Shown here: positions 5,609 through 43,404 of the stretch, one piece after another
How positions within the stretch are numbered: the stretch's first letter is position 1
Layout: every line of letters begins with the position of its first letter
Assembly: GCF_032854445.1 (NCBI RefSeq)
Contig: NC_088305.1
Coordinates: 30,282,628 to 30,346,627, forward strand
DNA from: Liolophura sinensis
Taxonomy: Eukaryota > Mollusca > Polyplacophora > Chitonida > Chitonidae
Reading direction: 5' to 3'
DNA length: 64,000 nucleotides
Position numbers and translations under genes: made by a program
The notes under the pieces: generated by a model
The model's database searches: none
What the model was told of the DNA's origin: nothing
Seen by the model: only the letters and a program-made list of their open reading frames with translations

Positions 5609-7335
5609 TCAGAGTATGTTGCTAATTGCTTCGAAGGTTTGTAACTGACGCGTTCGTCGGGAACGTGAGGGGGATTTGCACCAGCGAGTCATGCAGCGTC
5701 CCAAACCACGTCGAGTACATAATTTACACATGATTGGAGCCAGATGGATTTTTCCTACAAATAATAATCAGAAAAATAAATGTATTACGAGCAATGAGAA
5801 TAATTGTTATTTTTATAACAACAAAATCACATTTAGAACAAGAGCAACAGTGTTATTGATTATAATTGTGTGTAGTGCAATATTTTACAAAACTGTAAAT
5901 GTCTGCAACGTTACCGAAAATATTGTCTTAAATTACGCTCTAATGCGCGTTACATGGTGTCAAGAAATCATGTCCTTTAATCGTCAGGGTTATTTTATAA
6001 AACGCCTTCCGCGTTCCGCGTCTCAGGCGATTTTCTTCATAAGTGGGTGTTATGTATAATATAACGGCCGTCGTAAAAATGAAATATCCTTGAGTACGGC
6101 GTATAATTACTTATTTATATATTTGATTGATGTTTTACGCAGTACTCAAGAATATTTCACTTATATGACGGTGAGCAGCATTACGGTAGGAGGAAAACGG
6201 CGTAAAAACAATAAAAATAAATATGAAGTTATCTATGATCTATGATAGTTACAATAGGCATCGTAATAAATAAAATCACAACCCAGCTAGGAACCCTGGT
6301 TGAGTTATAAGATAAACTACTTGTATTATAGGTGAACTGCTAGTCAACGACTCAGTTTTCAAAAGTAATTGTTTTAACAAGTTGTTGTTGTTATTTGGTG
6401 AATCATTGGAAAACATACGAAAGCTACTGTTTTTGACCAGTACATTGTCGACAAGCGTCGACTTGTGGGTGACTTTATACCTGTAGGTACGCAGAAAATA
6501 TACCCAACGCGTGAGGATGTATTCGTGGCTTGTTCCTCGAATACGACAGTTTGTCGAAAGCTGATGCACCAATCAGAAGCCTGGAATTCTCTCTCAATTA
6601 TGATATTGGATAGTATTTACACTAAATCCAACACAACACGATTTAGTTAAAGGCGGTGACATGAAGCAGTTAGTACCGCTCTGTGAATGGCAACGCTGGT
6701 TTCAGATATAACTGTAAATTCGACATATCTTTAGTCCTACCTAACTGGAACACTGGCAGACTGCACCCAAGACACCAGGCATGACACCTGACTGACTCAA
6801 AGTAAGCCTACCCCCGATATATCCCTTTTCGTCGAAGTAACAAAGCCAGAACGTAGCCACATCAAACCTTAATCTGCATGCGAATTAAGCCCGGATCTCT
6901 CTGATTCCAGGTGTATACATGCACCCTATATACCTTGTGATCCAGTATAGTCAGGCTGGTCTTTTGTAGACAACAGAAAAACAGTTATAGAATGGGGCCG
7001 TGAGGTCATATTTTCATTATAGCTGTGGTTAATACAACTATAAAGGAAGGTGCATTCAGCTCAAAATCCTGACCGCACGTGCATGGGAAGGTCTTCCAGC
7101 AACCCGAGGATGGTCGTGGGATTACCTCGGGCTATGCTTGCATTCCTCCCACTATAATGCCGACAACTCAAGCATACGTGAACTAATTTTGAGTGCAGAG
7201 TAGACCACAAATCAGCTAAATCAACACAAATTTCTTACTGCGTCTCAGTCTCCATGATTTGGCTCCCCAAAACCGACTTGTCGCCAGGAGAGTAGACAAC
7301 AGTAATAAAGACATCATCAATCGGCAGAGGTTCAT
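5609..7335 (-). CDS. Secreted cationic 4-Cys peptide, family member A (two exons)
   Basis: Model: exon 1 at 7335-7239, intron 7238-5755 (GT..AG), exon 2 at 5754-5609 ending in TGA; 80 residues. Residues 1-20 (MNLCRLMMSLLLLST...) form a signal peptide with a basic n-region and a Leu-rich core. The donor is GTAAGAAATTTG. The acceptor is TTATTTGTAG, and the phase-1 junction makes an Arg inside a basic run, a possible proprotein cleavage site. Exon 2 carries C42, C45, C53 and C58 (C-x2-C-x7-C-x4-C) with KIHLAPIMCKLC and RCMTRWCKS, then an Arg/Ser-rich tail. I know no named family with this spacing. Export and an antimicrobial-like role are inferred from signal peptide, charge, paired Cys, multicopy nature and the kB site 355 bp upstream. 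It could instead be a hormone or pheromone. Lengths and phase agree with four sister genes. Confidence 0.78.
6105..6235 (-). mobile_element. SINE tail relic in the gene A intron
   Basis: Matches the reverse complement of the tail of the tRNA-derived SINE (GTTTTACGCAGTACTCAAGA, ATTTCACTTATA). The same relic is in the introns of genes C and E (15790-15905, 24660-24775), so it predates the tandem duplication. Confidence 0.65.
7078..7200 (+). mobile_element. Degenerate SINE body relic in the gene A intron
   Basis: Keeps GGGAAGGTCTTCCAGCAACC and a decayed version of the SINE body with CACTATAATGCCG. Genes C and E have the same relic with an internal deletion (17285-17360, 26155-26230). It ends about 40 bp from the exon 1 donor. 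Confidence 0.6.
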
Positions 7336-7689
7336 CTTGGTACAACATCAACGCAACTAGACTAAGCCACAGTTGTGATCGCAATTAAAACAGCCCAATG
7401 ATGCCTTATTTCTAGGTGTGACGTTTTCATTTTGGTATCCAATGAAATCGCGTTGTAGAATGTCACTTGTGTTCTTATTGGCCAACACCTAAAGCAGTAC
7501 CTGAATGGGGAGCCAGGAGTGTTAGAGTCAGCATTGAAATGCAGGACGGTTAAGACGATGTGTTTGCTATTTTTAGAAATGTGCAAGTACTGCTGTGTTT
7601 TAAAATTCTACATACGCTCAGTGTGAGACGACTGACTAGGTGCTGTGAAGCCTGGATTGACTTGTTTCCCACGCACAAAAAGTTTTTTA

Positions 7690-7700
7690 GGGGAATCCCC
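7690..7700. promoter_or_regulatory. NF-kB/Rel-type site upstream of gene A
   Basis: GGGGAATCCCC is a perfect 11-bp palindrome matching the GGGRNNYYCC consensus. It lies 355 bp upstream of the gene A ATG, in a conserved context (TTTTTTA before, TTTACTTTCA after) repeated at genes C, E and the 30.6-kb orphan module. A CRE-like TGACGT at 7419-7424 and a CCAAT motif lie nearer the gene. Confidence 0.7.
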
Positions 7701-7799
7701 TTTACTTTCACCAATAGATTGGGCAGTTTCCTGTACAGGAACCTCCACTGACTGTTAGCCGTTATATACGGAAGGCGATATAGGACATCTATGGAAGCC

Positions 7800-9560
7800 G
7801 ATAGAGGACATCTCCACCTGTATTGCAAATAGACTGAAAATAGCATTAGATAAGATTATACACGAGGACCAGTGGGGGTTTATTGCAGGCAGGTGTATCT
7901 CCGAAAATATAAAGAAAAGGATATATCAGGACTACTCCTTTCAATAGATTTTAAGAAAGCCTTCGATTCTATTTCCTGGGACTTCACAGAAGAAGTTCTC
8001 GAATCCTTGAATTTTGGAAAAGACTTTAGGAAATGGGTGAAAACATTTCACACAGATACCTTCACAAGTGTGCTACAAAACTGACATATATCGTCCTTTG
8101 TCGATATCAGCCTCGGGTGTAGACAGGGTGACCCAATTTCACCTTACATTTTCTCCTGTGTGATGAAATACTAGGCTATATGATCAGAAGTAACACAAAC
8201 ATAAAATGCATAACCATTAACAGTACTGGGTATAAACCCTGCCAGTTTGTCGATGACACACAACTAGTTGTTGGCGGTTCAGAAGATTCTCTTGCCGAAG
8301 CATTAAAATGATTTTATAAATACTCAGGCCTTAAAATAAATGTAGCAAAAACTAAAGCAGTCTGGATAGTCCGTGTGTCTGGAGCTCATCTAAAATTATG
8401 TCAAGAAGTGAAATTAAACTGGGTAACACAAATATGGTATTAATTTTTCATCAGTCGACTTTAATAACATGTGGAAAATAAATTATTCAGTAAGAATACA
8501 ACAGATTAAAATGGACATAAGAAATGGAAAATCAGGAACTTATTCTTACGAGGAAAGATTACTGCTATTAAATCCCTTGCCCTCTCTAAGATGATACATT
8601 TATTGTTTTCTCTGCCAAACACACCAGAAGACACAATAAAGAAATGAAAAGGGTACTTTATAAATTTCTATAAAACGATGGGCCGGACAGAAAAAAGCAG
8701 ATTTTGATAAATGATTTTGCCAGTGGAGGTATACGAATGATTAACTGGATTCCATATTTACAATCACTATAGATAAAATGGATTAGAAAATTAATTTTCA
8801 ATGACAAAATTGGCGGAGAAAATGTATTAATAATAAAAACTATCAAATATTACACAACATGGGCAGTGGTTACATCAAATATATGCTACAATCAATGAAA
8901 AAAACCTTCTTGGAAAGACACTCTTAAATCTTGGGATATTTTCCACCAAAAATTGCAGGAAAGAACAACAGTAAATATAGTAAACGAACACTTGTGGTAT
9001 ATTTTCAATGTAAAACGTCCATATTTCTTTATCCTAAACTGTTTTGATGATAAAGTACGACATACAAGAGATTTACTAGACAAGGAGAGCAAATTTCTAC
9101 CATTTTCACAATTTAAGAAAATGTTTATGATTACTTTGACTATAATAACCTAATTACAAACACTCCTAAAAGTTTAGAAAAAACAGATCAATGTTGATTA
9201 CTACTCGCCAACTTTCCCGATATCTTTTCAACTTCTAATGAAACCAAACTTAAAAATATCGATGTTTCATGACGTGTTGAACCCCGCTTATGAAAAACAA
9301 CGTATTCATGCTAAATGGGAATATAACCTTAAACTGAAAGAAATAAATTGGGCAAATATATTTTCTTCCAGTTTTTCCTGTATATCAATATACAAAACTG
9401 AGGGATTTTCAATATAAATTATTACATAGAAAAATACCAACAAAATCGTATCTCTATAAAATAGATCGTAAAGATGACGATGTTTGTGAAATATGTAAAA
9501 CCACCACAGAAAGAATATATCTATTAGATATAGCCTATTATTGAGGTATGAGAGGTATTG
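7800..9560 (+). mobile_element. LINE ORF2 relic (L1/Tx1-like)
   Basis: Broken reading frames give, in order: IANRLKIALDKII, QWGFIAGR, LLLSIDFKKAFDS (RT palm), CRQGDPISPYIF, a decayed FADDT motif followed by LVVGGSEDSL, KYSGLKINVAKTKAVWI, GGIRMINWIPY and a terminal CEICKTT Cys pair. Many stops and frameshifts show it is dead. Order and motifs fit the RT and C-terminal region of an L1/Tx1-group ORF2. Confidence 0.82.
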
Positions 9561-10366: not shown

Positions 10367-10638
10367 GATTGATTTTTTTTTTTTTTTGATTGGTGTTTTA
10401 CGCCGTACTCAAGAATATTTCACTTATACGACGGCGGCCAGCATTATGGTGGGTGGAAACCGGGCGGAGCCCGGGGGAAACTCACGACCATCCGCGGGTT
10501 GCTGGCAGACCTTGCCACGTACGGCCGGAGAGGAAGCCAGCATAAGCTGGTCTTGAACTCACAGCGACCGCATTGGTGAGAGGCTTCTGGGTCACTACGC
10601 TGCGCTAGCGCGCTAACCGACTGAGCCACGGAGGCCCC
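10367..10638 (-). mobile_element. tRNA-derived SINE, full length, with target-site duplication
   Basis: Reading the minus strand: tRNA-like head with A and B box motifs (GGCTCAGTCGGTTAGCGCGC, GAGTTCAAGACC), body, tail TACGGCGTAAAACACCAATC and poly-A. The flanks repeat GGATTATATTT (10356-10366 and 10639-10649). The matching place in unit 2 (about 20203-20213) is empty. Confidence 0.93.
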
Positions 10639-10762
10639 GGATTATATTTAAAGACAGGGTACATGAAATTATGAAAGTGAAACTGGACATATTTCTGGTT
10701 GATAGCGAAAACGTACTACAGAGTAATACGGAAAATTTAAAACTTAAAATCTTATCACAAAA

Positions 10763-10867
10763 TTAGAATCTCATTCTGATGCGAAATCCATCTCCTGAAA
10801 ACCGGCGTCTCGTCAACAGGAGTGCTGTCAGCATCACGAAACACATCGTTAGCCGGTAGAAATTCAT
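10763..10867 (-). pseudogene. Orphan exon 1 of the peptide family (copy B)
   Basis: The ATG at 10867-10865 opens a 34-residue frame starting MNFYRLTMCFVMLTALLL, clearly the signal-peptide exon type of gene F. Where the others have a GTAAG donor this copy reads ATGAG, and TAA follows at once. No 4-Cys exon lies between here and the next gene down. It is a relic unless the 34-residue product is itself used; unit 2 has a copy with the same coding sequence. Confidence 0.7.
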
Positions 10868-11440: not shown

Positions 11441-11459
11441 TTCTGCAGACATCTGAAAC

Positions 11460-12689: not shown

Positions 12690-13640
12690 TAACAAGCATT
12701 TCATTAGGTTTTGACCATGTGAGCCTCTTGTAGAATACAACCCGAAAATATTGGAAAGGTGTGTAGATACTTTGATTGCACTCTTTTCTGGAGTAATGGT
12801 ACGGGTAACTCTAATCGTCCCCAGCCGAACAAAACTGCTTCAGACTTGGTCGATGAGAAGCGGAATCCCCACAGTTTACGCCAGTTGCCAATTTTGTTCA
12901 TAGGCTGCTATACATACCTCTGTGCTATGTCAATATTCTTAGTACTGAACCAAACAGCAAAAAGGGAACAATTTATCTTCAGGATGAGGAGCAATGGCAC
13001 GTCATTAATAGCTCTATTAAACAGTGTTGGGGATAACACACTTCCTTGGTAAGCGCCATTGACGGGTGAAACAGAGCGAGAGAAGTCAGTACCTATGCGT
13101 ACCTGTATTGTGCGCTCGGAAAGGAAATCCCTAACCCAAGCGAGCATCCTACCCCCAATACCCATCTTAATTAACAATCGGCCCCACCACAACATATCAT
13201 AGGCTTTTTCGATATCTTCAAAATGCTACCAAGTTACATTCTTTATTTGCAAGTAATGTTGTTCGGGATGTTTCAGGCGAAACAACATGATCCATTATGC
13301 TTCTACCTTTCCTAAACCCACTCTGAAATATAGAAAATACTTCATTCTTGTCTTAAAACATTCAAATCCCACCTTTTCATTTTTTCCATGATCTCACAAA
13401 AAGTAGCTGTCAGTGTAGTTGTCCTATAAGACGTTTTTCCATGATGCAGGTAGTGCAAACATTGACCAAATGCTGTTTAAAAAACAAAACCAATACAGTT
13501 AGGCTACTTTCCGGTAGGTCCTTAATCATACAGAAGCTAGACCCGTCTTTCCCCAGGGGGAGGAAACTAAACGCCTGTTTAATGGCTGGTGTGTAACGTT
13601 GCAGCCATCTTTGGATATTTTATCCAAATTTTTAAGTTCT
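12690..13640 (-). mobile_element. Non-LTR reverse-transcriptase relic (Jockey/CR1-like)
   Basis: On the minus strand: IGGRMLAWVRDFLSERTIQV, GAYQGSVLSPTLFN (canonically PQGSVLSP), then further down NWRKLWGFRFSSTKSEAVLF. The frame is interrupted and the active-site FADD block is decayed. A sister copy is in unit 2. Confidence 0.8.
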
Positions 13641-15204: not shown

Positions 15205-17486
15205 TTACACTCTTTTTAAGATTATGTTTCTAATCGCTTCGATGGCTTGCCACCAACGCGTCCATCGGGGCGTGACATTTTTCCGTGAGGGGGATTCACA
15301 CCAACGTTTAATGCAGCGTTCCTGTCCACGACGAGTGCATGTTTGACACATGGCGGAAGCCAGATGGACAACTTTTCCTACAAATAATGATCAGAAGAAT
15401 AAATACATTACAAGCAAGGTGAATGACTGTTATTTTCCTAACAACAAAATCACATTTATAATCAGAGCAACAGTTTTATTAAAAATAAATGTGTGTAGTG
15501 CAATATTTTACAGGACTGTAAACCTTTGCAACGTTAACAAATATATTGTCCTGATTACGCTCTAACGCGCGTTACATGCTGTCAAGAAATCATGTTTGTT
15601 AATCGTCAGGGGTATTCCATGAATCGCCTTCTCCCATAGTTTCACATTTTTTTTTTCAGTAGATATTATTTCCCATGTGAGTGAATTATGGAAATTGTCT
15701 TCCTTGTCTCTGGCGTTTTCTTCATAATTGTGTGTTATCTATAATCTAACCACCGTAGTATAAGTGAAATATCCTTGAGTAGGGCATATAATTTATTTAT
15801 TTATATATTTGATTGGTATTTTACGCAGTACTCAAAAATATTTTCCTGACACGACGGCGACCAGTACTAGGGTGGGAAGAAAAAGGCGTAAAAAACAATC
15901 AAATAAATATAAAGTTATCTATAATGTATGATAGGCGCAATAGTAATAAATCATCGTAATAAATAAAATCACAACCCAGGTCGTAACCTTAATTGAGTTA
16001 TAAAATGAATTAAAATTGGCGAGTGACTATATACCTGAATTTATGCAGGAAATATATCCAACGCGTGAGGCTGCCTGTTCCTCGAACACGGCGGCTTGTC
16101 GCAAGCTGATACACTAATCAGAAGCCTGGAATTCTCTCTCAGCTATGATATTGTTTAGTATTTGACACTAAATCAAATACAACGCATTTTAGTTAGAAAC
16201 GGTGACACGCAGAAGTTAGCACCACACTCTCAATCGCAACGGTGGTTTGAGATATAGCTTATCCCACACTGCATTGACAAACGTAAGAAAGATTTTAGTG
16301 TAAGTTTTTAGAGAGTTTTGTACACCCCTATACATGTTCCTTGTACAATTGAGGTCAACCTGTGTAGATATAAGTATTCAGACGGGCCTTTGTACTGCAA
16401 GTGTTTGTTTGGAGATGCCCAGTTACACGCATACTAGTATCTTTTATTCCATTTCTTCTTTTATACAGACAAGCTCTGTGTATTCTTTTTTGTTTGCACA
16501 GGATTATTTCTACCAGCATTTTGTAATGAATGCTATTGTCAGAACTGTTGTCACATTGTGTTCATGCAAGCTTTTACAGAAATCAACCAGTAAGGTAGGT
16601 CCTGGTGTATACATGACTTGTTGCCTTGCTAAAACATTTAATATTTTGAATAAAAGGTGATAGGTTATCGCCACAACGTCTCTGATACAATTTTCACAGC
16701 GGACCAGTCTTCTAATTTTCCATTTCAATTGCTATCCTGAACATGTAATAAACCTCATTATTACATATTAATAATTTCCAATGCAGCGGCTATCCTCGAG
16801 TTAGTACTTTCGTTGCTTTCAATTTAAAAAAATTCACTGTTTTATATATTTTTTCATCTTTCTTTTTTCGATCAACATTCTTTTCAACAGCGTTTTATAC
16901 ATCCCGTCCACAGTAAATTCGACAAATATATATATATATAGTCTTGACTCACTGGAACACTGAAACGCAATACACCAGGCACGACGCCTGACTGACTCGG
17001 AGCATTCTTACCCTCTCATGTCGAAGCAGGAAAGCCACAACGTAGCCACATCAAACCTTATAGAATTGACCTGCATGCGGCTTAAACCCGGCTCTCTGTG
17101 TTTCCAGGTTTGTACATATGTCCTATATACCTGGTGGTTCAGTAAAGCGAGGCTGGTCTTTTGAAGACAACAGAAAAACATTTGTAGAAAAGGAGCCATG
17201 AGGACATATTTCTCATTATAGCTGCGGTTACTGCAGCAGCACAGGAAGGCGCATTCAGCTCAAAATCCTCACCGTACCTGTATGAGAAGGTCTACCAGCA
17301 ACCCACTAAAATGCCGGCAACTGAAGTATACGTACAATAATTTTGAGTGCGGCATAAATCACAAATCAGGTAAATCAACACAAATTTCTTACTAAATCGC
17401 CATGCTTGGACACCCGAAAACCGCATTCTTGTCGCCAGGAGAGTAGACAACAGTAATAAAGACATCATCAATCGGCAGAGGTTCAT
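15205..17486 (-). CDS. Secreted cationic 4-Cys peptide, family member C (two exons)
   Basis: Exon 1 at 17486-17393, intron 17392-15378, exon 2 at 15377-15205 ending in TAA; 88 residues. The signal peptide is close to gene A, then RFSGVQAWRF precedes the phase-1 junction Arg. Exon 2 reads KVVHLASAMCQTC and RCIKRWCESPSR with C42, C45, C53 and C58. It is followed by a longer Trp/Arg-rich tail (RWTRWWQAIEAIRN) that could be an amphipathic helix. The intron holds old SINE pieces shared with units 1 and 3. It differs from gene E by a few substitutions, five amino-acid changing and two silent by my reading. Its kB site lies 346 bp upstream. Confidence 0.8.
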
Positions 17487-17831: not shown

Positions 17832-17842
17832 GGGGAATCCCC
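17832..17842. promoter_or_regulatory. NF-kB/Rel-type site upstream of gene C
   Basis: GGGGAATCCCC in the same flanking context as at gene A, 346 bp from the ATG. Confidence 0.7.
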
Positions 17843-17939: not shown

Positions 17940-19700
17940 CGATAGAGGACATCTCCACCTGTATTGCAAATAGACTGAAAATAGCATTAGATAAGATTAT
18001 ACACGAGTGGGAGTTTATTGCAGGCAGGTGTATTTCCGAAAATATAAACAAAAGGATATACCAGGGTTACTCCTTTCAATAGATTTTAAGAAAGCCTTCG
18101 ATTCTAATTCCCGAGAATTTATAGAAGAAGTTCTCGAATACTTGAAGTTTGGAAAAAGCTTTAGGAAATGGGTTAATGCATTCCACACAGTTATCTTCAC
18201 AGATGCGCTACGAAACAGACATATATATTGCCCTCCCTCAATATCAACCGTGGATGTAGACAGGGTGACCCAATTTTACCTTACATTTTCTCCTGTGTGA
18301 TGAAATACTAGGCTATATGATCAGAGGTAACACAAAAATAAAATGCATAACCATTAACAGTGCTGAGTTGAAACTTAGCCAGTTTGCCTGTGACACACAG
18401 CCAGTTCGCCACGGTTCATTACATTCTCTTGCTAAAGCATTAAAATGGTTTTATAAATACTCAGGCCTTAAAATAAATGTAGCAAAAAATATAGCAGTCT
18501 GGATAGTCCCTGTGTCTGGAGCTCATCTAAAATTATGTCAAGAAGTGAAATTAAACTGGGTCACACAAACATGGTATTAATTTTTCATCAGTCGGCTTTA
18601 ATAACATGTGGAAAATAAATTATTCAGTAAGAATACAACAGATTAAAATGGAATTAAAGAAATAGAAAGTCAGGAACTTATCCTTACGAGGAAAGATTAC
18701 TGTTATTAAACCCCTGCCCTCTCTAAGATGATACATTTATTGTTTTCTCCGCCAAACCCACCAGAAGACTCACTGAAAGAAATGAAAAGGGTACTTTATA
18801 AATTTATATAAAACGATGGGTCAGACAGAAAAAAGCAGATTTTGATAAATGATTTTGCTAGTGGAGGTATACGAATGATTAACTGGATTCCATATTTTAA
18901 ATCACTATAGATAAAATGGATTAGAAAATTAATTTTCAATGACAAAATTGGCAAAGAAAATGTATTAATAATAAAAACTATCAAATATTAAACAACATGA
19001 ACAGTGGTTACATCAAATATTTGCTACAATCAATGAAAAAAACCTTCCTGGAAAGACATTTTAATATCTTGGTACATATTCCACCAAAAATTGCAGGAAA
19101 GAACATCAGTAAATATAGTAAACGAACACTTGTGGTATAATTCGAACGTAAAACGTCCACACGTCTTTATCCAAATCCGTTTTGATAATAAGGTACGATA
19201 TATAAGAGACCTACTAGACAGGGAGGGCAAATTTCTATCATTTTCACAATTTAAGAAAATGTTTATGATTAAAGGTACATACCTTGACTATAATAACCTA
19301 ATTACAAACATTCCTAAACCATGGATCCAAAGTTTAGAAAAAAAGAGAACAATGTTGATTACTACTCGCCAACTTTCCCGATATCTTTTCAATTTCTACT
19401 GAAACAAAACTTAAATATATCGATGTTTCATGACGTGTTGAACCCCGATAATGAAAAACAACGTATTCATGATAAATGAGAATATAACCTTAAACTGAAA
19501 GAAATAAATTGAGCGAGTATATTTTATTCCATTTTTCACTGTACACAATATACAAAACTGGGGAATTTTCAATATCAATAATTACATAGAATAAACCAAA
19601 AAGATCGTATCTCTATAAAACAGACCGTAAAGATGGCGATGTTTGTGAAATATGTAAAACCACCAAAGAAAGAATATATCTATTAGATATAGCTTATTAT
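17940..19700 (+). mobile_element. LINE ORF2 relic (L1/Tx1-like), unit 2 copy
   Basis: Same order as 7800-9560, with LLLSIDFKKAFDS, KYSGLKINVAK and later C-terminal blocks. It shares the family's stops and adds its own. Confidence 0.8.
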
Positions 19701-20323: not shown

Positions 20324-20428
20324 TTAGAATCTCATTCTGATGCGAAATCCATCTCCTGAAAACCGGCGTCTCGTCAACAGGAGTGCTGTCAGCATCACGA
20401 AACACATCGTTAGCCGGTAGAAATTCAT
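20324..20428 (-). pseudogene. Orphan exon 1 of the peptide family (copy D)
   Basis: Same coding sequence as copy B, with the same lost donor and the same TAA after 34 residues. No 4-Cys exon follows before gene C. The upstream promoter block is present once. Confidence 0.7.
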
Positions 20429-24080: not shown

Positions 24081-26356
24081 TTACACTCCTTTTAAGAGTA
24101 TGTTTCTAATCGCTTCGATGGCTTGCCACCAACGCGTCCATCGGGGCGTGACATTTTTCCGTGAGGGGGATTCACACCAACGTTTAATGCAGCGTTCCTC
24201 TCCACGACGAGTACATGTTTGACACATGGCGGAAGCCAGATGGACAACTTTTCCTACAAATATTAATCAGAAGAATAAATACATTACAAGCAATGTGAAT
24301 AACTGTTATTTTCCTAGCAACAAAATCACATTTATAATCAGAGCAACAGTTTTATTTATTGTAATTGTGTGTAGTGCAATATTTTATAGGACTGTAAACC
24401 TTTGCAACGTTAACGAAAATATTGAATAACGCTCTAACGCCTGTTATATGGTGTCAAGAAATCATGTCCTTTAATCGTCAAGGTTATTCCATGAAACGCC
24501 TTCTTTAGTTTCGTATTTTTTTCAATAGATATTATTTCTCATGTGAGTAAATTAAGGAAATTGTGTTCCGCGTCTCTGGCATCTTCTTCATAATTGTGTG
24601 TTATCTGTAATCTAACCGCCGTAGTATAAGTGAAATATCCTTGAGTACGGCGTATAATTTATTTATTTATATATTTGATTGGTATTTTACGCAGTACTCA
24701 AAAATACTTCCCTTACATGACGGCGACCAGCACTAGGGTGGGAAGAAAAAGGCGTACAAAACAATCAAATAAATATAAAATTATCTATAATGTATGATAG
24801 GCGCAATAGGCATCGTAAGAAAATAAAATCACAACCCAGGTCGTAACCTTAATTGAGTTATAAAATGAATTAAAATTGGCGAGTGACTATATACCTGATT
24901 TTATGCAGGAAATATATCCACCGCGTGAGGCTGCCTGTTCCTCGAACACGGCGGCTTGTCGCAAGCTGATACACTAATCAGAAGCCTGGAATTCTCTCTC
25001 AGCTATGATATTGTTTAGTATTTGACACTAAATCAAATACAACGCATTTTAGTTAGAAACGGTGACACGCAGAAGTTAGCACCACACTCTCAATCGCAAC
25101 GGTGGTTTGAGATATAGCTTATCCCACACTGCATTGACAAACGTAAGAAAGATTTTAGTGTAAGTTTTTAGAGAGTTTTGTACACCCCTATACATGTTCC
25201 TTGTACAATTGAGGTCAACCTGTGTAGACATAAGTATTCACACGGGCCCTTGTACTGCAAGTGTTTGTTTGGAGATGCCCAGTTACACGCATTCTAGTAT
25301 CTTTTATTCCATTTCTTCTTTTATACAGACAAGCTCTGTGTATTGTTTTTTGTTTGCACAGGATTAATTCTACCAGCATTTTGTAATGAATGCTATTGTC
25401 AGAACTGTTGTCACATTGTGTTCATGCAAGCTTTTACAGAAATCAACCAGTAAGGTAGGTCCTGGTGTATACATGACTTGTTGCCTTGCTAAAACATTTA
25501 ATCTTTTGAATAAAAGGTGATAGGTTATCGCCACAACGTCTCTGATAAATGTACAATTTTCACAGCAAACCAGTCCTCTAATTTTCCATTTCAATTGCTA
25601 TCCTGAACATGTAATAAACTTCATTATTACATATTAATAATTTTTAATGCAGCGGTTATCCTCGAGTTAGTACTTTCGTTGCTTTCAATTTAAAAAAAAT
25701 CACTGTTTTATATATTTTTTCTTCCTTCTTTTTTCGATCAACATTCTTTTCAACAGCGTTTTATACATCCCGCCCACAGTAAATTCGACAAATATATATA
25801 TATAATCTTGACTCACTGGAACACTGAATCGCTGTACCCAAGATACCAGGGCTGACGCCTGATTGACTCGGAGCATTCTTACCCTCTCATGTCGAAGCAG
25901 GAAAGCCACAACGTTGCCACATCAAACCTTATAGAAAGAACCTGCATGCGGCTTAAACGCGGCTCTCTGTGTTTCCAGGTTTGTACATATATCCTATATA
26001 CCTTGTGTTTCAGTAAAGTGAGGCTGGTCTTTTGAAGACCACAGAACAACAATTATAAATAGGAGCCATGAGGACATATTTCTCATTATAGCTGCGGTTA
26101 CTGCAGCAGCACAGGAAGGTGCATTCAGCTCAAAATCCTGACCGTACCTGCATGAGAAGGTCTACCAGCAACCCACTAAAATGCCGGCAACTGAAGTGTA
26201 CGTACAATAATTTTGAGTGCGGCATAAATCACAAATCAGGTAAATCAACACAAATTTCTTACTAAATCGCCATGCTTGGACACCCGAAAACCGGATTCTT
26301 GTCGCCAGGAGAGTAGACAGCAGTAATAAAGACATCATCAATTGGCAGAGGTTCAT
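24081..26356 (-). CDS. Secreted cationic 4-Cys peptide, family member E (two exons)
   Basis: Exon 1 at 26356-26263, intron 26262-24254, exon 2 at 24253-24081 ending in TAA; 88 residues. The signal peptide starts MNLCQLMMSLLLL. Exon 2 has KVVHLASAMCQTC, RGEERCIKRWCE and C42, C45, C53, C58. Near twin of gene C (recent duplication), with R5Q and M21I in exon 1 and Q50E plus two tail changes in exon 2. Both splice sites are intact. The kB site is 352 bp upstream. Confidence 0.8.
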
Positions 26357-26707: not shown

Positions 26708-26718
26708 GGGGAATCCCC
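26708..26718. promoter_or_regulatory. NF-kB/Rel-type site upstream of gene E
   Basis: GGGGAATCCCC in the conserved module, 352 bp from the ATG. Confidence 0.7.
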
Positions 26719-26819: not shown

Positions 26820-28900
26820 TAGAGGACATCTCCACCTGTATTGCAAATAGACTGAAAATAGCATTAGATAAGATTATACACGAGTGGGAGTTTATTGCAG
26901 GCATTTGTATTTTCGAAAATGTAAACAAAAAGATATACCAGGGTTACTCCTTTCAATAGATTTTAAGAAAGCCTTCGATTCTAATTCCCGAGAATTTATA
27001 GAAGAAGTTCTCGAATCCTTGAATTTTGGAAAAGACTTTAGGAAATGGGTGAAAACATTCCACACAGATATCTTCACAAGTGTGCTACAAAACTGACATA
27101 TATCGTCCTTTGTCGATATCAGCCTCGGGTGTAGACAGGGTGACCCAATTTCGCCTTACATTTTCTCCTATGTGCTGAAATACTAGGCTATATGATCAGA
27201 AGTAACACAAACATAAAATGCATAACCATTAACAGTACTGAGTATAAACCCTGCCAGTTTGCCTGTGACACACAGCTAGTTGTCGGCGGTTCAGAAGGTT
27301 CTCTTGTTGAAGGATTAAAATGGTTTTATAAATACTCAGGCCGTAAAATAAATGTAGCAAAAACTAAAGCAGTCTGGATACTCCCTGGAGCTGTGTCTGG
27401 AGCTCATCTAAAATTATGTCAAGAAGTGAAATTAAACTGGGTCACACAAATATGGTATTAATTTTTCATCAGTCGACTTTAATAACATGTGGAAAATAAA
27501 TTATTCAGTAAGAATACAACAGCTTAAAATGGAATTAAAGAAATAGAAAATCAGGAACTTATCCTTACGAGGAAAGATTACTGTGATTAAAGCCCCTGCC
27601 CTCTCTAAGATGATACATTTATTGTTTTCTCTGCCAAACACACCAGAAGACACAGTAAAAGAAATGAATGGGGTATTTTATAAATTTCTATGAAACGATG
27701 GGCCCGACAGAAGAAAAGGGCAAATTTTGACAAATGATTATGCTAGTTGAGGTATGCGAATGATTAACTGGATTCCATATTTTAAATCAATATAGATAAA
27801 ATGGATTAGGAAATTAAGTTTTAATGACAAAATTGGCGGAGAATATGTATTAATAATAAAAACTATCAAATATTAAGCAACATGAACAGTGGTTACATCA
27901 AATATTTGCTACAATCAATGAAAAAAACCTTCTTGGAAAGACATTTTAATATCTTGGTACATATTCCACCAAAAATTGCAGGAAAGAACAACAGTAAATA
28001 TAGAGTGTGAACACTTGTGGTATAATTCGAACGTAAAACGTCCACACAAATATAGAGTGTGAACACTTGTGGTATAATTCGAATGTAAAACGTCCACACG
28101 TCTTTATCCAAATCCGTTTTGATAATAAAGTACGATATATAAGAGACCTACTAGACAGGGAGGGCAAATTTCTATCATTTTCACAATTTAAGAAAATTTT
28201 TTATGATTAAAGGTACATACCTTGACTATAATAACCTAATTACAGACATTCCTAAACCATGGATCCAAAGTTTAGAAAAAAAGAGAACAATGTTGATTAC
28301 TACTCGCCAACTTTCCCGATATCTTTTCAATTTCTAATGAAACAAAACTTAAATATATCGATGTTTCATGACGTGTTGAACCCCGATAATGAAAAACAAC
28401 GTATTCATGATAAATGGGAATATAACCTTAAAGTGAAAGAAATAAATTGAGCGAGTATATTTTATTCGATTTTTCACTGTACACAATATACAAAACTGAG
28501 GGTTTATCAATACAAATAATTTCATATAATAGCAAGATCTTATCTGTATAAAATAGATCGGGGGCCTCCGTCCCTCAGTTGGTTAGCGCGCTAGCGCAGC
28601 GTAATGACCCAGGAACCTCTCACCAATGCGGTCGCTGTGAGTTCAAGTCCAGCTCATGCTGGCTTAAGTGGGAAGGTCTGCCAGCAATCTGCGGATGGTC
28701 GTGGGTTTCCCCCAGGCTGTGCCCGGTTTCCACCCACCATAATGCTGGCCGCCGTCGTATAAGTGAACTATTCTGGAGTACGGCGTAGAACACAAATCCA
28801 AAAAATAAAAAATAAAATAAAATAGACCGTAAGGATGACAATGTTTGTAAAATATATAAAACATCAAAGAAAGAATACATGTATCAGATATCGTCTGTTA
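26820..28900 (+). mobile_element. LINE ORF2 relic, unit 3 copy, interrupted by a SINE
   Basis: Collinear with the other two relics. It has an extra internal duplication near 28000-28100 (TATAGAGTGTGAACACTTGT twice) and a SINE at 28561-28818. Confidence 0.8.
28561..28818 (+). mobile_element. tRNA-derived SINE with target-site duplication
   Basis: tRNA-like head, B box GAGTTCAAGTCC, body and A-rich tail. Flanks AAAATAGATCG and AAAATAGACCG are the target duplication. Units 1 and 2 have the uninterrupted site at about 9460 and 19620. Confidence 0.93.
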
Positions 28901-29600: not shown

Positions 29601-30420
29601 GCTGCAGATCGCCCTTTTCAACTCCCAATCCTTGTTTGATGTTTATCCGTGTTAAACTGTGTTTTTTTTTTTTGCACAATGTTCAGTCCGTTTACTCATG
29701 CTTTCTCTCCGGAAACGCAATTGTCTGACTGAGGCCAATATATTGCTGTTGACCGAAATCTTCAAATTTGGTACATCATGTGACCTTTATGCATGAGTGT
29801 GACGCGTATATTTTACGTAACTGGTACGGTGCACTGAGTGAAACATGTACACGTGGCTGTTTTATTGTACATATAACTTTGTACAGATTGCGGCATTACA
29901 AATTTAAATTGTGATAGCCATCCATTGTATTTCACAATGCTACAGACGCAAATCATATTTATCCTCATGATACCTTGAACATATAAATTTTAATATATTT
30001 ATTTGCTTACTTAAAATAAGCATATACATATACCCATGATGCTGTTATTGTTTTGTTATTTATCAACATATGTTGAGAAATTACCATTGAATTGAGAATG
30101 TGAATTGAAGTGTTCCATTATTTTAACATTCGTTACCCAGTGTTTATGAATTTGATACGGAATACAACACGACCGCAAAGCATTTTCACAAGCAAACCAA
30201 ATAAAATTCAATATCAAACTATTGTTAACCTAATTTTGTAATAATTTTTTTTCCTACGTAAGTCAAACTTTAATTTCGTTTAAACAGTTGAACTCCCCAC
30301 TTTTGTTGTCGTTTTGCTGATGCCAGAGGTTTCCAGCTCCTTTAGCTCTGTCAGACAGAGTTTGGGAAATCTTTTGACGTGCCCGAACTCTCGCTGTCAG
30401 CAACGAGCCTAAGGCAGCAC
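29601..30420. other. Unassigned sequence
   Basis: AT-rich. I see no gene, no array and no exon 1 of the peptide family. Confidence 0.6.
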
Positions 30421-30429
30421 CTGAATGGG

Positions 30430-30680
30430 AATGGTAGCGTCAGCATTGAAATGCAGGACGGATCAGATGATGTGTTCGCTATTTATAGAAATGTATATGC
30501 GATTTTGAAACGCTACCCACGCTCTATGTTGGTCATTGGAAGACGAATGAAGGCTTTGTGAACCCGGGATTAACTTTGTTGTGACCCACCCTCGAAAACT
30601 TTTTAGGGGAATCCCCTTTACTTTCACGAACGGTGTGAACAGCTGCCTGTACAGGAACCTCCATTGATTGTTAGCCATTA
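30430..30680 (-). promoter_or_regulatory. Orphan peptide-family promoter module with a kB site
   Basis: Matches 7515-7765: TTGAAATGCAGGACGG, TTTTTAGGGGAATCCCCTTT (kB at 30606-30616) and CTGTACAGGAACCTCCA. Where exon 1 should lie, about 350 bp to the left, there is no signal-peptide frame. Probably left over from a lost gene. Confidence 0.65.
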
Positions 30681-31389
30681 TACCCTAAATATCGTTGAAA
30701 TTTCTCCGTGCTGCAAGTTTTTTTTTATATTATATTTAAAATTAGAGTGAATGAACTAGAATCTACGGGTTGTGAAAAGTCTGTCATACATTCAGATACC
30801 AATAATAAACCGTACTATATGTGCTCCAAGTCAATACCCGCAAGACCACAACGTTAAACACAAAGTCACAAGAAATAAGAAAGTATTTATAAATTAAGAA
30901 ATTCAGACAAGTTCACAAAAATCAGTCACAAGCTAACAGTCGGTTTAAATAAAAAACATATCTTTTAATTCACCATCGCTTCCAACTTGCGTAGACAAAT
31001 AGCTACATCAATCAAATAAATATAAAAATAAATAGATAAAAAAATTTGAACCCACGCGTTTGTAAAAAGTCTGGGTCGTCTTTCAAAAGTGTATTACCAG
31101 TTACGCCCAGAGTTAGCTATAGTATGGACTAAAATCGCATAAATTAGATCGATTGGTATTAAGATTTAATCGTGTCTTTGATACACCTTTGGACAAACGG
31201 CCCTAACATTACATGCACGTCTATCTGATCAGTGTAGTGCAGAGGAAACAAGTTTGTATGGAAACATCTTTCTCCCAGAAACAAAATACAAGATTCCTGC
31301 CCAAGCCCGGGGTCTTGAGATTATACACTTAAGTGGTACACCTTTTCCTGGTTTACCTGCGTAACAATTTCGAACTAACATTGACGGTG

Positions 31390-34395: not shown

Positions 34396-34735
34396 GTGAA
34401 CAGTCCTTGACATATTACACAGCATTCGCCAAATATTTCTGATGTGTTCATATTAACTACGATCGTGGGATTTACAGTCCGTGAACAGTCCTTGACATAT
34501 TACACAGCATTCGCCAAATATTTCTGATGTGTTCATATTAACTATGATCGTGGGATTTACAGTCCGTGAACAGACCTTGACATATTACACAGCATTCGCC
34601 AAATATTTCTGATGTGTTCTTATTAACTTCGACCGTGGGATTTACAGTCCGTGAACAGTCCTTGACATATTACACAGCATTCGCCAAATATTTCTGATGT
34701 GTTCTTATTAACTTCGATCGTGGGATTTACACCAG
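34396..34735. repeat. 85-bp tandem repeat, 4 copies, running into exon 2 of gene F
   Basis: Copies start at 34396, 34481, 34566 and 34651 with GTGAACAGTCCTTGACATAT. Each contains the mirror of the last seven codons and stop of gene F. The rightmost copy is the real exon end; the other three are duplicated exon tail plus 3' sequence. Confidence 0.92.
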
Positions 34736-36798
34736 CGTTGAATACAACGTATGAACCCCCTGCGACGACACAGGCCACATATTACAGCCGCAAGCTCAAG
34801 CCTTCCTGCAAATAATAATAATAATAATAATAATTAATGATAAAATACTATTCATGCCAGTAACAAGGATGATGACAAGAATTATGATGATCCCCTTATT
34901 ATTATTAAAATTTAGGTTGTCCATACTGATGTTTTGGATGGCCATAACTGATATTATAGGGTGTCTGTAACTAATTTACGGTGTTTACAACTGATGATGT
35001 ATTGTGTTTATAACTGATGATTTTGGGGTGTTCATAACTGACGATGTAGGGTGTCTTTAACTAATGGTTTAGGGTGTGGATAACTGAAGATGAACGGTGT
35101 TTCTAACTGATTCTAACTGACGATGTAGGATGTCTGTAACTGATAATGTAGGGTGTCTATAACTATTGGTTTAGGGTGTTTCTAACTGATGACGCACAGT
35201 GTTTCTAACCGATGATGTAGAATGTCTATAACTGATGATGTAGGATGTCTATAACTGATGATTTAAGATGTCTATAAATGATGATGTAGGGTGTCTATAA
35301 CTGATGATTTGGAGAGTTCATAAGTTATGATTTAGGGATGTAGTTTGTGTAGTTCATGAGAGTTTTCTGCTAGGGACATAAATGGAATGTTGCCAAATGG
35401 AATCTTACTCCAGGTTACACAGGAATGTGTTACGAAATATAATCTTACTCCAGCATACACAGGAATATGTTACGAAATATAATCTTACTTCAGGATACAC
35501 AGGGATGTGTTACGAAATATAATCTTACTTCAGGGTACACAGGAATGTGATACGAAAATAAAATATTACTCCAGGTTAAACAAAAATGTTACGAAATAGA
35601 ATCTTACTCCAACATACACAGGAAGGTGTTGCAAATTAGAATCTTACTCCAGGTTACACAGGAATGTAGTGCGAAATAGAATCTTACACAAGGATGCAGA
35701 GGAATGTACAGCAAAACTTGAATCTTATCCCAGGATACACAGCAATGTGTTGCGAATTAGAGTCTTACTCCAGGATAAAAAATAACGTGTTACGAATTAG
35801 AGTCTTACTCCAGGATACACAGGAATATGTTTAGAAATAGAGTGTTACTCCAGGGTACACATTAATATGTTACTAAATAGAAACTTACTCCAGGATACAC
35901 ATTAATATGTTACTAAATAGAATCTTACTCCAGGATGAACAGGAATATGTTACGAAATAGAATCTTATTCCAGGATACACAGGAATAATTTAGAAAATAG
36001 AATCTTACTCCAGGACACACCGGAATGTTAAGAAATGGAATCTTTCTCCAGGATACACGGGAATATGTTAAGAATTAGAATGTTACTCCGGGATACACGG
36101 AAATATGTTACAAAATAGAATCTGACTTCAGAACTCAAGGGAACATGTTGCAAACTACAATCTTATTCCAGGATGCACAGGAATATTACGAAATATAATT
36201 GAAATCTAGGATACAGAGGAAAGTTCACGAAATAGAATCTTACTCCAAGATACACAGCAGTAAGTTTCCAATTATAATTTTACTCCAGGTTACACTGGGA
36301 TATATCGCGAAATAGAATCTTACTCTAGGATACACAGAAATATGTTTTCAATGAGAGCCTTACTCCAGGAAGCACAGGAATGTTCAGTGAAAACAGATTC
36401 TTACTCCCGGATACACAGGAATATGTTGCGAAAATAGAATGTTACTCCAGGATACACAGGAATATGTTACGAAAAAGAATTTTGCTGGAGGATACACAGG
36501 AATGATACGAAATAGAATCTTACCCCAGGATGCCCAGGAATGTGTCACGAATAAGAATGTTACTCCAGGATACACAAAAATGTGTTACGAAAACAGAATT
36601 TTACTCTAGGATACATTTGAATATGCTACGAAATAGAATCTTTCTCCAGGATACAAAGGAATTTTACGAAAAAAGAATCTTACGCCATCCCCATCCCATT
36701 CTTATCGGTTTTCCAACTTCATCTTCTAAAACTGCGCCTGCCATCACCAACAGTGCAGTCAGCAGCACAAAACAGATCGTCAAACGGTAGAAATTCAT
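34708..36798 (-). CDS. Secreted cationic 4-Cys peptide, family member F (two exons)
   Basis: Exon 1 at 36798-36684, intron 36683-34806, exon 2 at 34805-34708 ending in TAA; 70 residues. The signal peptide MNFYRLTICFVLLTALLVMA is followed by a short propeptide with acidic residues (LEDEVGK) and MGWGW. The phase-1 junction gives Arg-Arg, a likely processing point. The mature part has C48, C51, C59 and C64, ICGLCRRRGFIRCIQRWC, and a seven-residue tail (KSHDRS plus stop), the shortest of the family. The TATA box lies about 77 bp upstream of the ATG. The intron is almost filled by arrays B and C. Splice sites and frame agree with the other members although the sequence is far diverged, which argues for selection on the peptide. 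Confidence 0.8.
34905..35340. repeat. Family array B in the gene F intron
   Basis: About 14 degenerate units near 28 bp (GATGATGTAGGGTGTCTATA). A similar array sits at the same intron position in gene G. Confidence 0.85.
35388..36683. repeat. 40-bp array C in the gene F intron, each unit with a splice-donor-like site
   Basis: About 32 units of about 40 bp (plus-strand GAATCTTACTCCAGGATACA plus 20 bases). Read on the gene strand each unit has TGGAGTAAGATTCT, close to the real exon 1 donor context TGGCGTAAGATTCT. The array begins exactly at that donor. Confidence 0.92.
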
Positions 36799-37194: not shown

Positions 37195-37204
37195 GGGGAA
37201 TCCC
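37195..37204. promoter_or_regulatory. NF-kB/Rel-type site upstream of gene F
   Basis: GGGGAATCCC after a T-run and A, 397 bp from the ATG. Flanks (GAAATTCTAACCACG, TTGTGACG) match the other promoter modules. Confidence 0.7.
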
Positions 37205-37461: not shown

Positions 37462-37471
37462 GGGGAATCCC
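37462..37471. promoter_or_regulatory. Second kB-like site upstream of gene F
   Basis: GGGGAATCCC, 664 bp from the ATG, outside the conserved module. Confidence 0.45.
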
Positions 37472-38936: not shown

Positions 38937-38944
38937 GTATTTAA

Positions 38945-40179: not shown

Positions 40180-40400
40180 GGTGGAGTGAACCGTTCAGAG
40201 CCTGAAGGAAACTGTCCACATCATGAAGGAAACTGACCCTGAATGAAACGACCCAGTATCTTGAGGAATCCGAACAGAGCCTTAAAGAAACCATCTAATA
40301 CATGGATGAAACTACACAGAATCAAAAACAAACTGTTTATAGCTTGGAGGAAACCGTTCAGAGCTTGGAGGAAACCGAGGAATACACGGCCCTAAGAAAC
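40180..40400. repeat. Degenerate minisatellite
   Basis: About eight units near 28-30 bp around GAGGAAACCGTTCAGAGC. Confidence 0.6.
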
Positions 40401-40739
40401 CTGGATTGTTCACGAGGTGATTGGCTGCGGTGGCGCTGGTAAAATTTATGTTTAAGCTATCCATGTTGTAAACTTACACCTTGATACTTCACCAGACATA
40501 TGCAAACATTATAATACAAACCTATGTCTGAAACAGTTATAATCCTGAACACGCAAGTAAATCATCATACGATATATGTCTAATACAACTCTGTTTATTG
40601 GTGGAGTATTTGGTTATACTTGCAGGAAATATAATTATGGTTTTGTTTATGTCTGGCTATTTTGTGATATTATTTACAGACATGTCTGATATATTAAACG
40701 AATGTCTTTGTGGCTCTGTGAGCTAATGCTGTGGAAAAT

Positions 40740-41440
40740 ATATGTTTATCTTTAGACTGAAACTTTCAGCGAATGGATAGTCTCCTACGTCAGACGTTTG
40801 TCCTCAAACGTCTCTCCTCAGCTCAGATTACAAAGTGTCTGCACACCATGCCTGCAATATACTAGTACCTACCATATCCAAGGTGACCCTGCTCCTGTCA
40901 GGTTGAAAGTACCCACAAGGGCGTCTGCCACATACCAGATATCTCTCTCCATGTCTCCGCTGCTGTCAGGTTGATAGTGCCCACAAAGGGCGCTTCCCAT
41001 ATAAAAGACATCTCTCTCAAATGTTCCTGCTACCCTCAGCTTGAAAGTGTCCACAATGGGCATTTCCCATATACCAGACATCTCTCTCACATGTCTTGCT
41101 CCTGTCAGGTTGAAAGTGCCCACAAAGGCGTCTCCCATATACCAGAAATCTCTCCCAATGTATCTGCTACTCTCAGCTTGAATGTGTCCTCAGAGAGCTT
41201 CTCCCATATACCAGACCTCTCTCTCAATGGTCTCTGCTCATTTCATACTGAAAGTTTCCAGCAATGGTTTCTATCATGCACATGGAATATCCCTCAAATG
41301 TCTTTCGGCTAATATAGACAGTGTCCACAAAACATACTTCTAACATATGCATGTATGCACGTATGTTCTCTCTAACATAAGCACAATATCCCTAACCGTC
41401 TCACAACACAAGGGATTCTCTGATATACCTTAAATATGCT
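40740..41440. repeat. Family array A downstream of peptide gene G
   Basis: About ten units with GTCAGGTTGAAAGTGCCCAC and CATATACCAGACATCTCTCT. Confidence 0.85.
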
Positions 41441-41930
41441 TCTGTAATCAGCGTAAAATGCGTCCAGAAACTAACTCTACCTTTAAAAGTCAAGTTCATT
41501 CAAGGTTTATGGATGGATCCAACACATCCGATGTCCCACCACCACGTCTCATGACAACGTTACTTTTAATTCCATTTCCACTGAAAGAAATTCGAACATC
41601 TGTAACCAATGCGTGGGACATTCGTTTGGCCTATTCGTAACAATGGTGCATGTGATTGGTCACTTGCGTGTAATTGGTTGACATTAGTCAATTAGACATA
41701 TTTTTAATCTTGTCAGCAAGATCTTGAGCCAAAATGTTTTGTAGCACAAGGTGTACAGTATTACCTTTCACATACTTCACGAGGTGTTGCCTGGACTTCA
41801 TAATTATTATTAATTTTGCAAATTATTAGTTTCTACTGTAACGTCGCACTGTCTTTGATGTCATCGCGATGAGCTGGAAAAGAGACATCCGACGTCATTG
41901 TATGACATCAAGGCCCTGCTGCCGGGCGTT

Positions 41931-43404
41931 TTAATTCCAGCGTGTCCATCCACGTGTGTTCCTTCTCCGTGAGTGGGATCTGCACCAGCGAGTAATACAG
42001 CGTTCTTTGCGCTGAAGAATACACACCTGACATAGTGCGGCAGCTAGATGAACACTTTGTCCTGCAAATAATAATAGTGATGATAATGATAATCATGATA
42101 GTTATAGCAACAAATCACAACATGAGTAGCAACTAAAACAGCGAAAATGGTACTTAAAGTCTGCAAACATTTACCAGCGTTAAATTCTTCACACACGCAC
42201 GCTTTAGACTGCTAAAAGCTAGCAAAAGAATGACAATGTCGAGCCATGCTATGTGCTATCATGTGACGTGCTTAAATAACAACTTTAGGCGCTTTTAACT
42301 TCACACATCCATCACTATCGACGTACGGTGTCAATAACTCTCGGCTTAGAGTGCACATGGCTCATTTCAAATGCTAAACCCTAAACCTCACCACTAGAGT
42401 ATCCATAATTCGTGGATTAAGGGTGTCGGGTAAATGTTGGTAACTCTCGACTTTAGGGTTACATAACTCATGACTAAGGTTGTGAGTGACTCATGGTTAA
42501 TACAGGGTATGCAATATTTAAGATTTACAGTGTCATGAGATCTATGACTCACTGCATCAGCAGTGATTAAGGGTGTCATGACTCGTGTGTGAAAGTGCCC
42601 ATAACTCATGAGATAGGGTGTCTGTAACTTATAGTATTTACGGTGTCCATACTTTATTGTTTAGTGAGTTCGTCTTCATTTACGCTGTTCATGGCAAACG
42701 AAATTTGCACTGTTTAACCCCGGAAACTTTATCTCCATTGCCAGCCAATCAGCGTCGACTTTATATCCCTTTCAGTTCAAAATATATGGTTAGGAATACT
42801 GAACGTATATACTTTAGTGAAGAATAAGTGTGACTTAAGTCTAATGCTACTTCGTAATCCCGAGGCTAAATCGTACATACATATGTTCCCTAAAGCTGGG
42901 GTCACGAAAGTGTAAAGAGGTAAAACCATAGGACCAGAGTGGGAATTGAACCCCGTACATCTTGGCGCTCAGTACTGAGAGCTTAGAGCAAGGAAACAGG
43001 ACTGACCGGCCCGGTGTCAGTATAATGTGACAGAATGGGGTGTCATTTCTGGTGTATGCAGAGCAATACCCCAGTGATGGCAGCATTTTGGTGGCATGAA
43101 GACTCCCCGCCACAGGAAGAAAAAGTATAAACATACTCACCGAATGACTCCTCGTCGCCATGTGAGTTAAAAATTATTAGGTACGACGTAAAAATGCCCC
43201 ATGAGTTCATATTCCTATACAGTGCCCTTTCTGACCTGTTGTCACCGCAGTGCACTGGGTCTTTTTTTAATGTAAAATGGTCAAGCGGTGTTAAGATAGA
43301 ATCTTACTTGTTTCTATCCCCCATCCTTGCATCCCTGATAACTGGCTTGTCGTCAATAGGGCTGTTAGCAGCACCAAACACAACACAAGCTGGCAGAAAT
43401 TCAT
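41931..43404 (-). CDS. Secreted cationic 4-Cys peptide, family member G (two exons)
   Basis: Exon 1 at 43404-43308, intron 43307-42062, exon 2 at 42061-41931 ending in TAA; 75 residues. The signal peptide starts MNFCQLVLCLVLLTALLTTS. The donor is GTAAGATTC, as in gene F. The acceptor is TTATTTGCAG, and the phase-1 junction is Arg. Exon 2 has SVHLAAALCQVC and KERCITRWCRSHSRRR with C43, C46, C54 and C59, then a Trp/Arg tail (RGWTRWN). The core is as basic as in the others though the sequence is diverged. SINEs at 44.2-44.95 kb separate it from the nearest kB site at 45307. Confidence 0.8.
42300..42660. repeat. Family array B in the gene G intron
   Basis: Degenerate units around TAAGGGTGTC and AACTCATGA; same place as the array in gene F. 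Confidence 0.7.
42950..43190 (+). mobile_element. SINE family 2 (subfamily b) in the gene G intron
   Basis: CCCGGTGTCAGTATAATGTG, GATGGCAGCATTTTGG and tail TTAGGTACGACGT. It lies about 115 bp inside the intron from the exon 1 donor. Confidence 0.72.

What the first reader, a model, noticed from the sequence alone, without database searches (positions are those of the whole stretch)
5609..43404. Undescribed family of two-exon secreted 4-Cys cationic peptides
Five minus-strand genes share a signal-peptide exon, a phase-1 GTAAG donor, a TTATTTG(T/C)AG acceptor, a junction Arg and C-x2-C-x7-C-x4-C with RCxxRWCxS in exon 2. All five junctions restore frame independently, and stops come 7-32 residues after the last Cys. 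Frames this short are easily missed because neither exon makes a long ORF. I recognise no named peptide family with this spacing. An antimicrobial or other effector role is inference.
Basis: partly seen in the sequence, partly recalled or inferred. Interest (0 to 1): 0.95.

Follow-up and report, generated by a model that had tools for sequence, protein, structure and literature searches.

The report
Chiton four-cysteine secreted peptide gene family
A chiton (marine mollusc) genome holds clusters of small two-exon genes for secreted four-cysteine peptides that match no family in the libraries searched, and the cluster in this window carries immune-type switch sites in front of its genes, so these may be a new family of host-defence peptides.

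Summary
All five minus-strand gene models lie at the stated coordinates: signal exon, phase-1 intron, junction Arg, C-x2-C-x7-C-x4-C with RCxxRWCxS. Shuffles give 0.07 hits on average against 5. A scan of both strands for signal-like exons with a phase-1 donor finds these five loci only. Small errors: gene C's acceptor differs by one base; tails are 6-30 residues.

The genome is the chiton Liolophura sinensis. The family is wider: 17 exon-2 loci on C11, C4, C7 and C12 were found, 15 of 17 keeping the spacing; 10 complete models all have a phase-1 intron.

New clue: palindromic Rel/NF-kB-type sites lie within 2 kb upstream of all five window genes, but not within 1 kb of the C4 genes.

No significant match in Pfam, NCBIfam or PDB. 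Best reading: Rel-controlled, disulphide-stabilised cationic host-defence peptides; gene family about 0.95, immune role about 0.6. A peptide hormone or cytokine is the main rival. Expression data and other mollusc genomes could not be searched; structure prediction failed.

The parts
7239..7335 (-). Gene A exon 1 (signal peptide)
5609..5754 (-). Gene A exon 2 (4-Cys core and tail)
17393..17486 (-). Gene B exon 1
15205..15377 (-). Gene B exon 2
26263..26356 (-). Gene C exon 1
24081..24253 (-). Gene C exon 2
36684..36798 (-). Gene D exon 1
34708..34805 (-). Gene D exon 2
43308..43404 (-). Gene E exon 1
41931..42061 (-). Gene E exon 2
7690..7700 (.). kB palindrome, 355 nt upstream of gene A
17832..17842 (.). 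kB palindrome, 346 nt upstream of gene B
26708..26718 (.). kB palindrome, 352 nt upstream of gene C
37195..37204 (.). kB-type site, 397 nt upstream of gene D
37462..37471 (.). kB-type site, 664 nt upstream of gene D
44299..44308 (.). kB-type site, 895 nt upstream of gene E
45307..45317 (.). kB palindrome, 1903 nt upstream of gene E
30408..30682 (-). Orphan copy of the A-C promoter with a kB palindrome (30606) and no exons found behind it
10766..10867 (-). Solo signal exon: 34 codons, then a stop; donor GT lost; no exon 2 found
20327..20428 (-). Solo signal exon, same 34 residues, same loss
45809..45900 (-). Decayed exon 2 with a frameshift inside the core

Best explanation
A chiton gene family for small secreted precursors: a signal-peptide exon, a phase-1 intron, and a last exon with a four-cysteine core of about 30 residues. 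Shown from sequence: gene anatomy, conserved spacing, paralogy on four chromosomes, decayed copies, and Rel/NF-kB-type palindromes upstream of all five window genes. Inferred: secretion; cleavage at a basic residue 7-10 positions before the first Cys; two disulphides holding a compact cationic core; induction of the C11 cluster by Toll/Rel signalling; action on microbes, most likely by binding or disrupting membranes through the cationic core and the W/R-rich tails of B, C and E.
For: Five genes with one anatomy; shuffles 0.07 against 5; signal-like exons with phase-1 donors only at these five loci at threshold 2.0; five more two-exon models on C4, 10 of 10 in phase 1; 15 of 17 exon-2 loci keep the spacing. 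D and E exons align at 53-67% to other copies while upstream and intron DNA gives 41-50%. Exon 2 charge +7 to +11 in A-E. Stringent kB motif: 14 positions (9 places) in the window against a shuffle mean of 0.275; 7 of the 9 places lie within 2 kb upstream of A-E; 1 place in 133.5 kb of other stretches. The 11-mer occurs 707 times in the genome against 40 for the reversed-order control; 0.07 expected in 64 kb, 5 seen. The gene B promoter stretch matches four places in the genome, all in this cluster.
Against: No transcript, peptide or activity data. Four of the five 11-mers are copies of one another, so only two independent cases remain (P 0.0026), and I looked for kB sites with an immune idea in mind. 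No kB site within 1 kb upstream of F-J (880 bases for G). One kB place lies inside the TLR reading frame and one in the orphan promoter, so not every site marks a working gene. The excess of synonymous change is modest: pooled P 0.005, single pairs P 0.13, 0.23 and 0.05. The core of I is -1, and F and G are near neutral over exon 2. H has a fifth Cys in exon 2. No structure.
Confidence: 0.6

Rival explanations
1. Peptide hormones, neuropeptides or cytokine-like ligands: prohormones with signal peptide, basic cleavage site and a conserved disulphide core of about 30 residues acting on a receptor.
For: A basic residue stands 7-10 positions before the first Cys in 10 of 10 models, and the core is of constant length. 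In F and G, Gly-Arg follows the core, which could allow C-terminal amidation (inference). The C4 genes have no kB site within 1 kb upstream and neutral or acidic tails.
Against: Tandem expansion with relics and strongly varying tails is less usual for hormones; kB-type sites upstream of A-E; cationic A-E. One open-paper search for chiton neuropeptide precursors returned a single paper, on an abalone (listing only).
Confidence: 0.25
2. Reproductive, mucus or other secreted recognition proteins of fast turnover, not immune.
For: Fast-changing tandem paralogues and birth-and-death are also seen in reproductive and mucus protein families (recalled); relics.
Against: kB-type sites upstream of A-E.
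Confidence: 0.1
3. Not working genes: relics of one duplication or a transposon-borne frame.
For: B and C are recent duplicates, and the window holds relics. Low-copy reverse-transcriptase-like frames lie in the duplicated units (by eye).
Against: D, E and the C4 genes are old and diverged yet keep open frames, intron phase and all four Cys. Protein searches give 7-12 matches per search at E up to 10, not the hundreds of a transposon, though counts are lower bounds.
Confidence: 0.05

Closest known systems
Mytilus CRP-I cysteine-rich peptides (PMC10138031; passages read)
   Same: Mollusc, secreted precursors with basic processing site, cysteine-rich peptide in the last exon, many paralogues and pseudogenes
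   Different: Six Cys, C(X3-6)C(X1-7)CC(X3-4)C(x3-5)C, exons 2-4 coding; here four Cys, no CC pair, two coding exons
Macins (theromacin, neuromacin, hydramacin; PMC12295236, passages read)
   Same: Cationic secreted antimicrobial peptides of lophotrochozoans and others
   Different: The passage gives seven to nine Cys; here four
Helical-hairpin peptides with C-x3-C-xn-C-x3-C (alpha-hairpinins, kappa-hefutoxin; recalled)
   Same: Four Cys in two pairs on short segments of a small peptide
   Different: Spacing here is C-x2-C-x7-C-x4-C; fold unknown
NF-kB-controlled antimicrobial peptides of insects and vertebrates (functional class, recalled)
   Same: Short secreted cationic peptides, clustered paralogues, kB-type sites upstream
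   Different: No sequence match found; induction not tested

Membership tests
Any Pfam-A or NCBIfam family | Score over the curated cut-off | tested here: not met
   Pfam: exon 2 of A, B, D, E 0 matches; precursors of A, B, D-J: 8 of 9 none, H two weak ones (E 0.15 and 0.22) below cut-off. NCBIfam: A, E, G; one weak match for G (E 1.1) below cut-off. C was not scanned.
Any protein of known structure | Significant sequence match in the PDB | tested here: not met
   Profile of 8 exon-2 sequences: two chains at E 0.25 and 0.45; distant folds cannot be excluded
Mytilus CRP-I | Six-Cys array with a CC pair | tested here: not met
   Four Cys in exon 2 of 9 of 10 models, five in H, no CC pair in the core
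Macins | Seven to nine Cys in the macin pattern | tested here: not met
   Four or five Cys in exon 2
Helical-hairpin 4-Cys peptides | C-x3-C-xn-C-x3-C | tested here: not met
   C-x2-C-x7-C-x4-C in 10 of 10 models; defining pattern recalled
Helical-hairpin 4-Cys peptides | Two antiparallel helices | not testable with these tools
Host-defence peptide (functional class) | Small, secreted, cationic | tested here: met
   A-E: 70-88 residues, signal-like exon, exon 2 charge +7 to +11; secretion by hydropathy only
Host-defence peptide (functional class) | Kills or inhibits microbes; induced by infection | not testable with these tools
   kB-type sites are indirect
Peptide prohormone | Signal peptide plus basic cleavage site before the core | tested here: met
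   Basic residue at -7 to -10 in 10 of 10 models; cleavage not tested, and the feature is not specific to hormones
Peptide prohormone | Known receptor or neuroendocrine expression | not testable with these tools
   No expression data at hand

The most novel reading that the evidence does not exclude
A new small disulphide scaffold (C-x2-C-x6-R-C-x3-[WFY]-C) founds a chiton peptide superfamily: a Rel/NF-kB-controlled, tandemly expanding cationic effector branch on C11, and sister branches on C4, C7 and C12 under other control that may serve as signals rather than weapons.
Probability: 0.45. Interest if true: 0.68.

Novelty: new variant of a known kind. Interest (0 to 1): 0.55.

Why it matters
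One search for chitons with antimicrobial peptides listed five papers, each naming chitons one to three times (listing only), and two chiton genome papers hold none of the immune, toxin or peptide words looked for in their main text. A family of short two-exon secreted peptides that gene callers can easily miss would give Polyplacophora candidate immune effectors, a testable link from Toll/Rel signalling to effectors in this mollusc class, and a new small disulphide scaffold. Working copies beside decayed ones also make a compact record of birth-and-death evolution.

Tried and rejected
Rejected: (a) starfish origin, first guessed from genome size (note); chromosome lengths and mitochondrial gene order point to the chiton. 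(b) Transposon origin: few protein matches, and a promoter found only in this cluster. (c) Positive selection on exon 2 of A against B: exon 2 is less alike (77%) than upstream DNA (93%), but the intron is also about 80-85% and the step lies in exon 1, so recombination or conversion explains it; non-synonymous change against intron P 0.09. (d) Weak genome hits: C13:5244753 was read and has no core; C8:37061522 and C8:13318198 were scanned and have no core; C6:17631543, C6:42598941, C8:32368155 and C13:336010 were not read and not counted. (e) Literature: the spacing string found ten plant SRS/SHI papers, one fungal zinc-cluster paper and one leech macin paper; six core strings found none. Led nowhere: first search of papers, starfish peptide search, broad mollusc searches, neuropeptide search, kB-string search, tRNA and Rfam scans, related-loci search. 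No signal exon was recognised for the two C7 copies. No mollusc protein set, transcript set or subscription paper could be searched.
Full report
WHERE IT IS. The window is G000:C11:30282628-30346627 of a genome of 609,464,459 bases in 632 contigs. The published Liolophura assembly has 632 scaffolds and 609,495,693 bp (slightly more than held here). Its scaffold_7, scaffold_8 and scaffold_12 are 32,819,725, 31,077,156 and 25,057,479 bp, exactly the lengths of C11, C12 and C4 here (passages of PMC11068029). A correction renames the species from L. japonica to L. sinensis (whole text). The mitochondrial contig C632 reads, by eye and recall only, in a chiton-like gene order.

THE OBSERVATION. Searches confirm five minus-strand two-exon frames at the stated coordinates. 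Five strict core hits stand against a mean of 0.07 (maximum 1) in 60 shuffles, and 5 against 0 for the core with RCxxRWC. Scanning both strands for an ATG exon with a hydrophobic stretch (threshold 2.0) and a phase-1 GTRAG donor finds the five genes and nothing else; at 2.3 only D and E pass, at 1.9 three other places appear. SignalP was not available. Gene C's acceptor departs by one base from the stated consensus, and tails are 6-30 residues.

NOT ONE DUPLICATION. B and C are 93-98% alike in every region. A against B or C is 93-95% upstream, 88-90% in exon 1, 83% in the intron, 77-78% in exon 2 and 58-66% downstream, with a step in exon 1 that suggests recombination or conversion. D and E are old: upstream and intron DNA gives 41-50% to any other copy, about what forced alignment gives, while exons give 53-67%; local alignments of D, E and the others do reach from the intron end into exon 2. 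Synonymous exceeds non-synonymous change on three independent pairs (A-B, D-E, F-G: 66.8 of 163.6 sites against 158.2 of 547.4; pooled P 0.005), but single pairs give P 0.13, 0.23 and 0.05: selection on the frame is supported, modestly.

THE FAMILY BEYOND THE WINDOW. Protein searches of the genome and reading of loci give 17 exon-2 loci. C11: five intact and one frameshifted. C4: F, G, H, I, J, one with a stop inside the core (6062502) and one that lost the second Cys (6061077). C7: two. C12: two, one with a frame break before the core. 15 of 17 keep C-x2-C-x7-C-x4-C; the stop-bearing copy is counted among the 15. Counts are lower bounds by the tool's own statement. For 10 loci (A-J) a signal exon was found upstream on the same strand, and 10 of 10 models have a phase-1 intron with a GTAAG or GTGAG donor; G has two possible donors, both phase 1, and several models have a second possible acceptor a few bases on. 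For the two C7 copies no signal exon was recognised in the stretches held; for C12 only 500 bases each were read; for the broken C4 copies none was found in L038.

THE PEPTIDE. In 10 of 10 models the core reads C-x2-C-x6-R-C-x3-[WFY]-C; 9 of 10 go on with x-S-[HPY]; a basic residue stands 7-10 positions before the first Cys in 10 of 10, a likely processing site (inference). Exon 2 charge is +7 to +11 in A-E and 0 to +7 in F-J; H has a fifth Cys. One C12 copy and the C7 copies have a further Cys after the core. B, C and E have W/R-rich tails. The most amphipathic 18-residue stretch of exon 2 lies in the core rather than the tail in 10 of 10, and shuffles of that stretch reach its moment with frequency 0.003-0.05 in 9 of 10 and 0.17 in I; these P values ignore that the best stretch was picked. 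Pfam, NCBIfam and PDB give no significant match. No structure could be predicted.

REGULATION. Palindromic Rel/NF-kB-type sites (motif recalled) lie upstream of every window gene: 355, 346 and 352 nt before A, B and C; 397 and 664 before D; 895 and 1903 before E. The stringent motif takes 14 positions at 9 places against a shuffle mean of 0.275 positions; of the 9 places 7 are these, one is in the orphan promoter and one inside the TLR frame. Fourteen other stretches (133.5 kb) hold one place. The 11-mer GGGGAATCCCC occurs 707 times in the genome against 40 for the reversed-order control; 0.07 are expected in 64 kb and 5 seen, but four of these are copies of one, so the fair figure is two independent cases, P 0.0026. 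The gene B promoter stretch matches four places in the genome, all in this cluster: A, B, C and the orphan. A weaker block is shared by the orphan and D (67% over 165 nt, E 1.5e-5). Against: no site within 1 kb upstream of F-J, and the motif was chosen with an immune idea in mind.

RELICS. Two solo signal exons (10766-10867, 20327-20428) read the same 34 residues, end in a stop, have lost the donor GT and have no exon 2 found behind them. One exon 2 is frameshifted inside the core (45809-45900). One promoter copy has no exons (30408-30682). This looks like birth-and-death of a tandem array.

HOW IT MOST LIKELY WORKS. Shown: anatomy, conserved core, clustered paralogues, relics, kB-type sites. 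Inferred: secretion, cleavage at the basic site, two disulphides, induction by Toll/Rel signalling, action on microbial membranes. An 838-residue single-exon Toll-like receptor frame lies in the same window (57846-60362), but neighbourhood alone says nothing of regulation. The hormone or cytokine rival fits the C4 genes nearly as well.

NOVELTY. Not found in the libraries, nor in the open-paper searches made here. Mollusc protein sets, transcript sets and subscription papers were not searched, so 'undescribed' means in these sources only. It is a new family of a known kind of molecule.

Noticed in passing
57846-60362 (+): Single-exon Toll-like receptor frame of 838 residues with LRR and TIR matches.
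   Followed up: partly
1612-2150 and 2798-3336: Inverted repeat of 539 nt arms, 99% complementary, 647 nt apart: a very recent large palindrome carrying a 30-nt minisatellite.
   Followed up: no
35387-36687: 40-nt minisatellite of about 33 copies filling much of the intron of gene D.
   Followed up: no
10368-10640, 28669-28817, 44265-44413, 45980-46252, 52063-52211, 53699-53964; also 7084-7232 in the intron of gene A: Dispersed short repeat of about 150-270 nt in both orientations, perhaps a SINE or MITE; not matched by Rfam.
   Followed up: no
17995-18577, 27144-27458, 12911-13225: Reverse-transcriptase-like frame fragments by eye, some within the duplicated units of B and C.
   Followed up: no
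48361-49091 and 49554-51224: Long GC-rich minisatellites with open frames up to 576 codons on both strands; unlikely to be genes.
   Followed up: no
G000 contig C99 (L043-L046): COX1 recurs about every 15.5 kb, seven matches: apparently head-to-tail copies of the mitochondrial genome, perhaps an assembly artefact.
   Followed up: no
whole genome G000: GGGGAATCCCC occurs 707 times against 40 for its reversed-order control, an 18-fold excess that may mark working Rel sites or a repeat.
   Followed up: no
L009-L042 (C4:1.53 and 6.05-6.16 Mb; C7:25.50 Mb): Sister clusters of the family with working and broken copies; C7 copies run into a minisatellite-coded tail.
   Followed up: partly
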